64,000 bases of DNA from Bugula neritina (lineage: Eukaryota; Bryozoa; Gymnolaemata; Cheilostomatida; Bugulidae), in assembly GCA_964035545.1 (NCBI GenBank), contig OZ037773.1, positions 10,480,251 to 10,544,250 on the forward strand. The letters run 5' to 3'. Shown in pieces: positions 1,732 to 25,715 of the stretch (within the stretch, counting starts at the first letter, position 1; every line of letters begins with the position of its first letter). The notes below the pieces were generated by a model. That model saw only the letters and a list, made by a program, of their open reading frames with translations. It was not told where the DNA came from and made no database searches. The translations under genes were made by a program, and so were the position numbers.

Positions 1732-4385
1732 TTACTCTGAAGAATAAAATTTCAAATTACATGAAATTGTTTTTTCTAGTAATTCAGATATATCTTCTCT
1801 AACGAAAGTTTTTACTAGTACTGTCACTACTTCAAAGTCAAAGGTGAGATTCTTTAAACATTTAAATGTTATTTGTCATGTTATGTATGTTGAAGAATAA
1901 CCAACATGTTACAGATAGTTGGTACGAAGGTGTTTCCGTATTGGGTGAACATATTTTAGAACATTCAAGATTATACTACCTGTATAGTGATGTTATTACT
2001 TGAATAGTTGAATAGTTCATCACATTAGTATTTTTCACCAGCTTGTTCTCCATAATTTGTTACAACTTCAACTTTAGTCACATCAAGCAATTTCTACACA
2101 TGTGAATTCAAATACATATTAGGTTATAGACAATAATAGACTAAATCCATACATTACATTTTAACTTTATAATCATAAATATATTATTGTTTCCATTAAT
2201 ATAATAATAATAGAAGTGTTGAAATTTAGAATAATATTATAATATTAAATTTTAGCCAAAATAGAAACAGCCATAATATATATATATATATATATATATA
2301 TATATATATATATATATATATATATATATATATATATATATATATATATATATATATATATATATATATATATATATATATATATATATATATATATATA
2401 TATATATATATATATATATATATATATATATATATATATATATATATATATATATATATATATATATATATATATATATATATATATATATATATATATA
2501 TATATATATATATATATATATATATATATATAGCTACAACTTAATACTTGGCAATACAGGCTATAATTTTTTAATGCAACAAAGGAATATAGCAGTGTAC
2601 CTCCACTATTTTCTTTATCTCTTCTAAGTTCTTAACAACTCCTTCACTAGCACTCTCTCTGCCATCTTCAATCTTAGTAGTAGTGTCTCCGATCCAGAAT
2701 TTTAGGTCCTCCTTTCTGCTCTCAATGTGGTCAAATAGACTGTCATATCTCTGTTTGTAGTAGTCCCGTTCTTCTTTCAATTTCCTTTATACATAATACA
2801 ATAATGCATAAGTGTTGCAGCTTTACGTTACGAGAATCATTCATGGTACATGAATACGGGTCTACAATTAGTTAAATATGTGCCAAGTATTGTCAAAGCT
2901 AAATATTACTTGAAGAAAATTATGTATTTTGTCATGCTATGGCATTCGCTGATTGAAATTTCTTTCAAACAACTATGAGAAGACAACTCTGATGTTCAAA
3001 GAGATTAAATCAGAGTTCAATATTTCTATCTAATGCAATGAGAAACAGCATTGGCCTATTAAGAAGTAAATTTTAATTGCATTGGTATGATGGGATGTTC
3101 GCTTTTGCTGCTGTTTGCTTTTTCATCAATTCAACTGTCAATTTTGCAGCATATTTTATATTGTAAACTTCTCAGCATATAACTAACAGAGCCTTGAAAT
3201 TAGCTGTTAATTGAACCCACCTGAATTTGTCCAAATGATTTGCTTCCAATTCGGGATACAACTCTTCCATCTCAGCAATCATCCTGCAATGTTAGAGGCA
3301 GTAAATATTAGACTATGATTAATACAAAGGGTGGTCAGTTAATTAACAAGTAAGGTAATAATATAATATTATGATAACAAACTTGATGTGTTGTATGTAA
3401 CAATTATTAGATATTATATTATATAATCTACTTTAGGCATACATACTTAGATTTATTATTTTATAAACCACTAAATGATCAAATAAATTTACATACTCTT
3501 CATAAGTCTCTATTATTTGTCGAATATTCCAGAAGTCTTCACGTGGTTGCAGGTATTCTTTTACTGTTCTCTCTTGCTGCTATAGTCACAAATAAATAAC
3601 AGCTAGTAGATTAAATAATATATAGGCTAATATGCTCTCACTAATTTATGAAAAGAAATACTAGCTGTATTCACAAACATGTGCATGGTAACATAAAATA
3701 GATATACCTCTTGGTTTGGCAAGTAAAGCCAGTTTTTCTCTATAATGCAGAACCTCACAAACGCTCCATATACTTCTAGAAACTCGTCACGTTCCTCAGG
3801 ATCTTTAAAACTATGCTCCTCACGAACGTGAACAATGTTATTTCGAATTTTTCTTATTATATATCCAGGGTCTTCTTCTATTCTGGGATGCATCAAATCT
3901 CTCCCTCCATTTATGGATAGCCAATTTATTGGTATACCAAACTTTAAGTGGTTCACAATATCAATGACTAAGCAATGCTTGTCACGACACAGGACACTCA
4001 TGAATTCATGTATCAAACCTATTTTTAATCTCTTTTTTTCCTCGAGAGCCAATGTATTAGATTCATTGTATTTTAGAAGTAATCTGCGCGTATCATGGTT
4101 TTCAGACCAGTCATAGTTACTTGCTTCAACACTAAAATTGCCCTTATCAAATTCAGATATAGCATTTCCCAGAGCACGAAGCTTGTCTTCGTTTCCTATT
4201 CCTTGGCGACAAAACTCCTTTAACATTTGTGTTAAATTTGGTACTCTGTTATAGCAATGTACCGCAATGATTCGCTTAAATAGTGCCTCTGATTTTTCAA
4301 TCAACACAACAGCAACAGCCAAGTCTGTCCATTTTTTTAAAGTTTGTTGCAGTTTGTTAAGCTCTTCTGTACTAAGTGTAGCCAT
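1732..4385 (-). CDS. HEPN-like plus coiled-coil protein, paralog 1 (six coding exons)
   Basis: Exons in coding order: 4385-3708, 3579-3497, 3283-3221, 2784-2601, 2093-2039, 1826-1732; about 385 residues, phases consistent. Exon 1 encodes a helical domain with IRNNIVHVREEHSF near residues 180-195. R-N-N-I-V-H fits the RX4-6H signature of HEPN nuclease-fold domains. Later exons encode charged helices (EMIAEMEELYPELEANHLDK, then KLKEERDYYKQRYDSLF) that look like coiled coil. ATG 4385 is preceded by an acceptor-like GAATTTAG. Every exon aligns with the paralog at 17815-21742. The last exon is the least certain. I do not recognise a named family; RNase activity is inference from the motif alone. 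Confidence 0.65.
2276..2532. repeat. (TA)n microsatellite, about 128 copies
   Basis: Uninterrupted alternating TA for about 257 bp, in the intron between exons 4 and 5 of the first HEPN-like gene. It can extrude as cruciform or hairpin and is a likely site of length polymorphism and assembly error. Confidence 0.98.
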
Positions 4386-4440
4386 GATATACCATCAGCT
4401 TATATTTGATGATCTAAATTCAAATCAAAAGATGAATGTA

Positions 4441-4883
4441 CAGAATATACAGTACATCACTTGTATGTGGTAATACTGCAGACTATACAGTACATCACTT
4501 GTATATGGTAATACTACAGACTATACAGTACATCACTTGTATATGGTAATACTACAGACTATACAGTACATCACTTGTATATGGTAATACTACAGAATAT
4601 ACAGTACATCACTTGTATATGGTAATACTACAGAATATACAGTACATCACTTGTATATGGTAATACTACAGAATATACAGTACATCACTTGTATATGGTA
4701 ATACTACAGACTATACAGTACATCACTTGTATATGGTAATACTACAGAATATACAGTACATCACTTGTATATGGTAATACTACAGAATATACAGTACATC
4801 ACTTGTATATGGTAATACTACAGACTATACAGTACATCACTTGTATATGGTAATACTACATACTATACAGTACATCACTTGTA
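4441..4883. repeat. 38-bp satellite, left segment (about 12 units)
   Basis: Tandem units contain TACAGTACATCACTTGTATA followed by TGGTAATACTACAGACTA. This continues at 6201 after a transposon insertion. It lies between the inferred 5'-UTR exon and the first coding exon of the first HEPN-like gene, so it is probably intronic. Confidence 0.95.
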
Positions 4884-6200
4884 GGGGTAACGGGGGCACA
4901 ACGGGCCGAATTTTGCATTTGTTGCTCTCATTCGTCTGTTTTCCAAGTTACTAGTTCAATAATTTCTAGTCGTAATGCTGCATCTGTTGTCTATTACAGG
5001 TACCAGTTTGTTGTTTCTATCTCTCTCACAACTTTCAGAATAATGAAATTTTCATGACGAAAAAATTGGCCCATTGTGCCCCGGTACCGGGGTACAATGG
5101 GCCACTGGGTGGGACACAACAAATATATTGAAATTTTGCGTATTTTGTTACACCTGATCTTTATTTATTTAATATTACAAATAAATAAAGATACTCTTTC
5201 AGATCTACAGCAAAATTCATGTTTTAGCTGTACAGTTTGTGCCACTACGAATAGGAGAGGAAGGCAAAATCAAATGCGCGTCACTCGGTTCTGCAGTGCC
5301 ATTACCATTACTGTTTAAAACTAAAAATGTTTTGTTATTTTCACTTCAGAGCAACGTTTATTAAAAAAAACTTTACTAACATGTACTACAAAATTCTGAG
5401 TGAACTTTTTTCTATGAACTGTAGCTAAAGTGCATGCATGGCTTCCGTTTGTGACTGGAGTTCGGAAGGGAGAGGGGGGAGCAAATGAGCAAATCACAAT
5501 TTATTTTAGTCAAATACATATATATTCTCTTAATGGTGTAATATATAATGATTATCATGACTATGTACTAGTAGCAACAGCAGAGTGTTTTGTATTATGT
5601 ATAAAATGGCAAAGCTTTAACCTCACCAGATGTATGTATTATGGGAGCTTCACCTTGTAGTTTGGTAGTCTTACCATGAAGTCTTTGATATTTTACAAAA
5701 AGGTCAGAAATGGCTATATTTAAAGATTTTAGTAACAGTTCAACCAACTTTTTGGGCAAACAAACTAATAACAGTGATCAGGGTGCAATAATCAGGTGGC
5801 CCATTGTGCCCCATTCAGCGTGGCCCATTGTGCCCCGTGTGGCCAAATTGAAAATAAATGTGCCTCAAGGAAAATTTATTTCAGTGTCTGCTGTTATACT
5901 AGTTAAGCAATGTAGAAACAAGCAATGGCAACAATCTCAGTAAAATCTAGGCTTCTTGCCTTTGAGTGTAAAAAGTTATAAGGCTTTAACGACATCCTAA
6001 AAAAATTACAAAAAGTAGGTAAAAACAGTTTTTTACTCGCCTTTTCAACACGTATGTTCCGCAAGTGTTGAAACTACAAAGGCTGAATGATTATGTCAAT
6101 ATCTTTTTATGAAAAAAAATTCACAACTCTAAGTCAATAAGTTCTCTCACAATTTGGCTGGCTTTTTGTACCCCTATGACCGTTGTGCCCCCGTTACCCC
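4884..6200. mobile_element. Non-autonomous DNA transposon with TA target duplication, inserted in the satellite
   Basis: The ends are perfect inverted repeats of 21 bp beginning GGGGTAACGGGGGCACAAC. The element is flanked by TA on both sides, and removing it with one TA restores a normal satellite unit (CACTTG-TA-TATGGT). TA duplication points to the Tc1/mariner/pogo group. Inside, the 15-mer GGCCCATTGTGCCCC occurs at about 5069, 5799 and 5820, the first copy as one arm of a near-perfect palindrome. No ORF longer than about 80 codons and no transposase motif is visible, so it is non-autonomous or decayed. Confidence 0.85.
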
Positions 6201-24900: not shown

Positions 24901-25316
24901 CTTGTATATGGTAATACTACAGACTATACAGTACATCACTTGTATATGGTAATACTACAGACTATACAGTACATCACTTGTATATGGTAATACTACAGAC
25001 TATACAGTACATCACTTGTATATGGTAATACTACAGACTATACAGTACATCACTTGTATATGGTAATACTACAGACTATACAGTACATCACTTGTATATG
25101 GTAATACTACAGACTATACAGTACATCACTTGTATATGGTAATACTACAGACTATACAGTACATCACTTGTATATGGGTAATACTACAGACTATACAGTA
25201 CATCACTTGTATATGGTAATACTACAGACTATACAGTACATCACTTGTATATGGTAATACTACAGACTATACAGTACATCACTTGTATATGGTATTACTA
25301 CAGACTATACAGTAAA
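21956..25316. repeat. 38-bp satellite, second array (about 88 units)
   Basis: Same unit as the arrays at 4441 and 6201. Variant units recur at multiples of 38 bp, and a block near 22141-22340 recurs near 23021-23230, showing higher-order duplication. It fills the inferred 5'-UTR intron of HEPN-like gene 2. Confidence 0.97.
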
Positions 25317-25622
25317 ATACAGACTATTTGTACAAACAGAGAGGAAGTCTCTAGAGTTTCTACCAAACATAAAACACCACCTTAACTTAGTACTTGGTTT
25401 TCGAAATACAGTCTGAAAATAAGATTGTCATCAATTGATAATTTATCTCCATTATTGCATATTTCATAATATAGTGTGATTACTAAAAGGTTAGGTGAAG
25501 AAACAAGTTGTCAGACTCTCAGATATTCTACATAAGCAGCATATACTAAATATGCATCATATAACTTATAATCTTATTCGGTAACTTCCTGGTGGCACAG
25601 GAAGAGAACTGCTGAATCTTAC

Positions 25623-25715
25623 CTTTAGAAGTTTGAGCTGTCAACTTGATCGACTCTCTGTGAAGTGGCACTGAAGTAGTAGATACGTGAGTAGTTATAG
25701 TCTGGCTAAACCAAT
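25623..25715 (-). promoter_or_regulatory. Inferred 5'-UTR exon and CCAAT-bearing promoter of HEPN-like gene 2
   Basis: Homologous to 7948-8043. The donor reads AAAG then GTAAGATT on the minus strand, a strong consensus, and the inverted CCAAT is at 25711-25715. Homology to the first copy extends over about 25317-26100. Confidence 0.5.

What the first reader, a model, noticed from the sequence alone, without database searches (positions are those of the whole stretch)
1732..25715. Duplicated, unnamed HEPN-like plus coiled-coil gene family
Two minus-strand genes 13 kb apart share six coding exons with identical phases, a common IRN-x-IVH-x-R-x-x-H-x-F motif fitting the HEPN RX4-6H signature, coiled-coil exons and conserved leaders. 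The proteins are strongly diverged (paralog 2 has an extra Pro/Gln-rich leader and an acidic tail) while motif and exon structure are kept, as expected for a fast-evolving family. HEPN domains are often RNases in defence systems; that role here is inference. This is the best candidate in the window for an undescribed system.
Basis: partly seen in the sequence, partly recalled or inferred. Interest (0 to 1): 0.75.

Follow-up and report, generated by a model that had tools for sequence, protein, structure and literature searches.

The report
Fast-evolving HEPN-like gene family
Two neighbouring genes (and a third just outside the window) belong to an unnamed, fast-changing family of helical proteins that carry the signature of HEPN RNA-cutting enzymes; they may be immune effectors, but neither the enzyme activity nor the immune role has been shown.

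Summary
Genes A (4385-2025) and B (21742-17815), both minus strand, are paralogues with matching exon order and intron phases. A third copy, C, lies about 30 kb outside the window. The genome holds at least 28 members, A-C included. RX4H is invariant in the 8 core proteins and kept in three others from two more branches, but absent from 22 of 28 genomic members. No library gave a convincing family match. A and B themselves give no Pfam HEPN match; 4 of 31 members give sub-threshold ones, all RX4H-keepers, and these vanish when R and H are replaced in silico (4 of 4). Predicted folds place RX4H where HEPN domains have it, but fold searches do not single out HEPN. I rate a HEPN fold likely (about 0.7), RNase activity plausible, defence unproven. 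New here: exon 1 is a diverged cassette. Between B and C it is 64% identical, introns 2-3 are 83-90%. Promoter and leader are 82-87% identical among A, B and C. All 126 exact genomic copies of a 25-base satellite core lie in the inferred leader introns of these three genes.

The parts
3708..4385 (-). Gene A coding exon 1: HEPN-like helical domain, 226 aa; RX4H (RNNIVH) at residues 181-186
3497..3579 (-). Gene A exon 2 (starts phase 0, ends phase 2; KEYLQPREDF...IIETYE)
3221..3283 (-). Gene A exon 3
2601..2784 (-). Gene A exon 4, charged helical tail
2039..2093 (-). Gene A exon 5; reading on past its donor gives GEKY and a stop (to 2025), so a sixth exon is unproved
4414..7947 (-). Gene A inferred 5' leader intron, holding two 38-bp satellite arrays (4439-4883, 6201-7653) and about 1.3 kb of other sequence between them
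   Evidence: splice sites inferred by eye
7655..8438 (-). Gene A leader/promoter block, 82-87% identical to those of B and C; leader exon ends at 7948
20894..21742 (-). Gene B coding exon 1: Pro/Gln-rich leader plus HEPN-like domain, 283 aa; RX4H RNRIVH; GC donor
20679..20758 (-). Gene B exon 2
19408..19488 (-). Gene B exon 3, 94% identical in DNA to gene C
18887..19118 (-). Gene B exon 4, charged helical tail
18166..18247 (-). Gene B exon 5
17815..17897 (-). Gene B exon 6, acidic tail (AEDDDAEE), not conserved in gene C (37% aligned identity)
21804..25622 (-). Gene B inferred 5' leader intron with the 38-bp satellite array 21953-25314 (about 88 copies)
   Evidence: splice sites inferred by eye
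25315..26113 (-). Gene B leader/promoter block; leader exon ends at 25623

Best explanation
Genes A, B and C encode a lineage-specific family of HEPN-fold proteins: an N-terminal HEPN-like domain (coding exon 1) followed by a charged helical tail. Members that keep RX4H most likely dimerise and cut RNA at a metal-independent site, with the tail helping them assemble; I infer they act as intracellular effectors in host-parasite or selfish-element conflict. Exon 1 evolves as a diverged cassette, while the promoter, leader intron and part of the gene body are homogenised among paralogues by exchange. Shown: gene structure (by sequence), homology, motif conservation and absence, mosaic divergence, and the confinement of the satellite to these genes. 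Predicted only: helix topology. Inferred: HEPN homology, dimer, RNase, exchange as the cause of the mosaic, defence.
For: RX4H invariant in 8 of 8 core proteins that are otherwise as little as 25% identical to gene A, and kept in L027, L063 and L050. The label needs 4 changes on the tree, fitting an ancestral motif with repeated loss. Core and non-core profiles are homologous with RX4H aligned to RX4H (hhalign probability 98.5, E 1.6e-15); 8 of 8 core members beat 3,200 decoys and 17 of 25 non-core beat 10,000. Sub-threshold Pfam HEPN matches in 4 of 31 members, all RX4H-keepers (4 of 10 against 0 of 21, Fisher 0.007). The match is no longer reported after R,H to A in 4 of 4, still reported after F,Y to A in 4 of 4, and not reported for 10 of 10 motif-keeping shuffles. 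A fifth keeper, P0005, matches PADLOC's Cas13c model weakly (E 0.0023) over a stretch that holds RX4H; that Cas13 is a HEPN RNase is recalled. RX4H ends the penultimate helix in both models. Mosaic: four-fold sites of exon 1 differ at 16 of 36 between B and C, against about 182 of 1,095 positions in intron 2 (p 1.2e-4).
Confidence: 0.5

Rival explanations
1. HEPN fold, but mainly a non-enzymatic binding or oligomerisation module (as in motif-less HEPN domains); RX4H in the core trio is a remnant or serves another role.
For: 22 of 28 genomic members lack RX4H, yet 21 of these 22 matched without a stop inside (C8:7184186 has one TAG). In the C9:8.86-8.93 Mb cluster, five beta-propeller exons (two with a TAA inside) lie downstream of five motif-less HEPN-like units.
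Against: R and H are two of only nine invariant columns in an alignment with 32% mean identity, and are kept in three branches in all.
Confidence: 0.27
2. A helical domain unrelated to HEPN; R-N-x-I-V-H is a coincidental structural motif.
For: No HEPN match for A or B and none at cut-off elsewhere; fold searches give generic helical bundles. A and P0004 score best with PF03015 (Sterile; E 0.0016-0.0019), also far under its cut-off.
Against: Motif spacing, the polar residue after R, its place at a helix end before the last helix, and HEPN hits in other members that depend on R and H.
Confidence: 0.22
3. The diverged exon 1 reflects relaxed constraint plus patchy gene conversion of the flanks, with no selection for diversity. 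(This concerns the evolution only and is compatible with any of the readings of function.)
For: Exon-1 dS between B and C is also high (0.65), and 4-fold sites are diverged, so old age of exon 1 with later flank homogenisation suffices.
Against: Frames stay open and invariant residues are kept in all 8 core proteins. The diverged block runs from the start codon through intron 1, and gene C groups with P0003 rather than with gene B (95/92; gene C's branch is long), so the divergence was retained, not decayed.
Confidence: 0.45

Closest known systems
HEPN superfamily RNases (RNase L KEN, Las1, ApeA, RiboL-PSP, DZIP3, CXorf38)
   Same: RX4H with a polar residue after R, at the end of the penultimate helix; several families lose the motif; some eukaryotic ones are linked to host-pathogen conflict (PMC3710099, passages)
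   Different: No named HEPN family is matched at its cut-off; HEPN-like domain at the N-terminus followed by a charged helical tail; the tail exons of A, B and C that were scanned gave no NACHT, Death, TPR or RING match (exon 4 of each)
DZIP3/hRUL138-like HEPN (PF18738)
   Same: Animal HEPN family; this genome has a true one at C6:308951 (74 bits against a cut-off of 27)
   Different: None of 31 family members is listed for PF18738 at E <= 1 (25 of 26 matched families shown)
Sponge Sacsin-like HEPN-Death proteins and the expanded metazoan TRADD-N/Death effectors (PMC3710099, PMC8195603; passages)
   Same: Expanded, fast-changing families with HEPN domains in animals
   Different: No Death or TRADD-N match in the exons scanned

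Membership tests
HEPN superfamily | Rx4-6H with a polar residue after R | tested here: met
   R-[NH]-x-I-[VI]-H in 8 of 8 core proteins, plus L027, L063 and L050; absent from 22 of 28 genomic members
HEPN superfamily | Motif at the end of helix 3, just before the loop to helix 4 | tested here: met
   Predicted models only, moderate confidence: A has R181/H186 in helix 173-187, then helix 196-216; B has R186/H191 in helix 179-192, then 201-221 (residue numbers)
HEPN superfamily | HEPN helical-bundle fold by structure comparison | tested here: inconclusive
HEPN superfamily | Conserved acidic residue, often Ex3[KR], near the active site | tested here: inconclusive
   Gene A E33 is nearly invariant; followed by x3-K in A, P0005 and C8 members, by T or I in B-type ones, D in P0004; no coordinates to measure distance
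HEPN superfamily | Dimer with a composite active site; metal-independent RNase activity | not testable with these tools
   single-chain models only; no assay
HEPN_Apea (PF18739) or HEPN_RiboL-PSP (PF18735) | Profile score over the curated cut-off | tested here: not met
   best about 14 bits against cut-offs of 24.4 and 28.4; own-genome search with PF18735 found nothing at E <= 10
DZIP3-like HEPN (PF18738) | Profile score over the curated cut-off | tested here: not met
   0 of 31 members listed at E <= 1 (25 of 26 matched families shown)
CXorf38 HEPN (PF15112/DUF4559; the link of name to accession is recalled) | Profile score over the curated cut-off | tested here: not met
   0 of 31 members listed at E <= 1 (25 of 26 shown); no hit in own genome, but no control rang either

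The most novel reading that the evidence does not exclude
An undescribed diversity-generating effector locus: HEPN RNase genes whose catalytic-domain exon is kept as old, divergent alleles or paralogues (allorecognition- or MHC-like), while promoter, leader exon and a satellite-filled leader intron, whose repeat core occurs nowhere else in the genome, are exchanged among copies and serve as the recombination handle.
Probability: 0.12. Interest if true: 0.82.

Novelty: new variant of a known kind. Interest (0 to 1): 0.5.

Why it matters
If the HEPN reading is right, this genome carries an unnamed, expanded family of predicted RNases below the cut-off of every HEPN model searched. It would offer a natural series from motif-keeping to motif-less members, and a three-gene locus where a variable effector exon sits between homogenised flanks. 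That makes two questions testable: which early-animal HEPN proteins are real RNases, and whether an immune effector exon is kept diverse while its regulatory module is shared.

Tried and rejected
Foldseek and VIA on both models did not settle the fold: no HEPN row among the 50 Foldseek rows listed for each, one weak HEPN row (3o10) by VIA for A. PDB sequence search gave nothing convincing: two transport permease chains at E 0.9 for gene A and one chain at E 6e-4 with no matched stretch of its own for the core profile. NCBIfam gave 13 scattered families (best E 2e-4, RecN, one member; the most widely matched, a peptidase model, hit 3 of 31 members at best E 0.0044). PADLOC gave 8: besides Cas13c in P0005 (residues 129-202), DzbB in gene A (E 0.0038, residues 135-216), AbiEii in L027 (0.0034) and GajB in gene B (0.024); I give the last three no weight. 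Prokaryotic (genome contigs) and viral collections gave 36 and 2 pattern matches, none confirmed as a relative at tblastn E <= 1e-3, so a symbiont or viral origin has no support here. The protein database gave P0001-P0006 only, all from JGI records without names. Structured RNA in the satellite: z-scores -0.15 and +1.51, nothing. An exon-2-like piece was sought by pattern in eight sources: found in the window (A and B), in L014 (C) and in L055 (the C1 member), not in the five others. The species was not identified; I suspect a sponge, which is an impression, not a result. Paper searches listed 20 of 1,155, 15 of 143, 15 of 9,275 and 1 of 1 papers; none of the titles or abstract starts shown describes this family. 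PMC3710099 and PMC8195603 were seen in passages only, PMC8260672 only in the listing. Two further paper searches (minisatellites in sponges; variable exons and gene conversion) were not used.
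Full report
What is there. On the minus strand, gene A (start codon 4385) and gene B (start 21742) have the same exon order with exon-end phases 0, 2, 2, 0, 1. B has a sixth exon with an acidic tail. A's exon 5 can run directly to a stop four codons on, so its sixth exon is unproved. A third gene, C, has its exon 1 at C9:10449199-10450002 (minus), about 30 kb beyond the window's low end. It matches B's exons 2-4 at 51-77% protein identity over the aligned stretches and has the same splice sites for exons 1-5, including a GC donor after exon 1. 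At the same point P0001 reads on with a valine codon, which fits a GT donor. I take this as good evidence that the gene models are right, although no transcript was available.

Family. Seven searches of the own genome (215.8 Mb, 295 contigs) with exon-1 proteins of A, B, C, P0005, L027, L050 and a C8 member gave at least 28 members, A-C included: A, B, C; C9:9019099; C9:8858950 and 8933246; eight at C9:8.86-8.92 Mb; two at C6:12.06-12.09 Mb; four at C6:15.63-15.65 Mb; four at C8:8.23-8.25 Mb; C8:7184186 (one internal TAG); two on C1; one on C5. Two weak hits on C3 with stops inside (E 2.7 and 8) were dropped. The tool states that such counts are lower bounds. Core (8) and non-core (25) groups are homologous: hhalign probability 98.5, E 1.6e-15, with RX4H aligned to RX4H. 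With a profile of the other group, 8 of 8 core proteins beat all 3,200 decoys; 17 of 25 non-core proteins beat all 10,000 decoys and 8 did not. The C1 member L050 shares the exon 1 / exon 2 boundary, its phase and the KY-L-x-P...Y exon-2 motif (the splice sites were read by eye).

The motif. RX4H is invariant in A, B, C and P0001-P0005, and present in L027 (RNKVVH), L063 (RNNIVH) and L050 (RNRSVH). L062 has R but not H. The other genomic members lack it, so 6 of 28 keep it. On a tree of 33 proteins the label needs 4 changes (shuffled mean 9.4, 0 of 500 as low), with keepers in three places: the core, L027/L063, and L050. Long branches make details unsure. The simplest reading is an ancestral motif lost several times, as the HEPN survey PMC3710099 reports for some other HEPN families (passages).

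HEPN or not. A and B themselves give no Pfam HEPN match. Pfam scans of 31 members gave 26 families at E <= 1, 25 of them shown; the best E is 0.0016, and every score I saw is below its cut-off. Four families match two members each: Sterile (A and P0004), DUF4904 (two close C8 relatives), and two HEPN models, whose members are distant from each other: C and P0004 (HEPN_Apea, E 0.076 and 0.061), P0002 and L050 (HEPN_RiboL-PSP, 0.24 and 0.06). These four keep RX4H (4 of 10 keepers against 0 of 21 others, Fisher 0.007). The R falls at about column 90-93 of HEPN_Apea in both; for HEPN_RiboL-PSP the estimate is 152-153 counted from the end of the match but 161-186 counted from its start, so it is loose there. 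After replacing R and H by alanine the HEPN match was no longer reported in 4 of 4; after replacing another conserved pair it was still reported in 4 of 4. Ten shuffles that kept the six motif residues in place gave no HEPN match. So the match rests on the RX4H position and also needs the surroundings. PADLOC's Cas13c model matches P0005 at E 0.0023 over residues 129-202, which hold its RX4H; other PADLOC and NCBIfam hits are scattered and unrelated. All these E-values are weak.

Mosaic evolution. B and C align along the whole gene. Exon 1 is 64% identical in DNA (41% protein, 109 of 264) and intron 1 66%, whereas exon 2 is 84%, intron 2 83%, exon 3 94% and intron 3 90%; exons 4-5 and introns 4-5 are in between (75-78%) and exon 6 is 37%. 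Even four-fold sites of exon 1 differ at 16 of 36, against about 182 of 1,095 positions in intron 2 (Fisher p 1.2e-4). High synonymous divergence means that exon 1 is older than its flanks, which points to exchange of the flanks, not to selection alone; dN/dS is 0.73. In eight within-cluster pairs elsewhere dN/dS ran from about 0.2 to 0.8. On the tree C groups with P0003 (95/92) and A with P0004 (100/99), while A-type and B-type are separate clades (96/92 and 100/99), so the coding split is old. Yet about 800 aligned columns of promoter and leader are 82-87% identical among A, B and C, and satellite stretches of A and C about 97%.

The satellite. A 38-base repeat fills the inferred leader intron of each gene: 4439-4883 and 6201-7653 (A), 21953-25314 (B), L014:4227-6825 (C). 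An exact 25-base core occurs 126 times in the whole genome, all on one strand (which listed the first 100 places); 80 are in the window's three arrays and 46 in C's array, which accounts for 126 of 126. The window holds many other tandem arrays (113 rows, overlapping ones counted), so a private minisatellite may be ordinary in this genome; I did not test whether others are equally private.

Mechanism. Most likely: HEPN-like dimer, RNase in motif-keeping members, helical tail for assembly, use in conflict with parasites or mobile elements. All four steps go beyond what was shown; the last two have the least support. The beta-propeller exons found downstream of each of five motif-less units at C9:8.86-8.93 Mb (the grouping into units is mine, and two propeller exons have a TAA inside) suggest that relatives are joined to sensor-like domains, but joining in one transcript is unproved, and propellers of this kind are common in this genome (148 matches at E <= 0.001 among the 150 candidates scored).

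Verdict. Observation confirmed, with corrections; HEPN interpretation partly supported; defence untested. The family looks new as a family but falls within a known kind.

Noticed in passing
window 4439-4883, 6201-7653, 21953-25314; L014:4227-6825: A 38-bp minisatellite confined, in the whole genome, to the inferred leader introns of genes A, B and C (126 of 126 exact core copies).
   Followed up: partly
window 42146-53062: Tandem array of small predicted secreted proteins on the + strand with signal-like N-termini and hydrophobic C-termini; one member matches Lectin_C weakly (E 0.019), another a Cementoin repeat just under its cut-off (E 7e-6).
   Followed up: no
window 28159-28509 and 34489-34899, minus: Two related open frames (SGHxNxxAAL..., ENSNSK...LGP) with no Pfam family over cut-off.
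   Followed up: no
window 362-1252 minus and 10373-10684 plus: Retroelement gag-like open frame with a weak zinc knuckle (E 0.023) and a second, similar fragment.
   Followed up: no
window 4884-6200: About 1.3 kb that splits gene A's satellite array and has no match in the flanks of B and C compared; possibly an insertion.
   Followed up: no
L057:5348-6121 and C9:8874128, 8883903, 8894398, 8915108, 8926267: Beta-propeller-like exons interleaved with motif-less HEPN-like units; 148 related matches genome-wide, a lower bound.
   Followed up: partly
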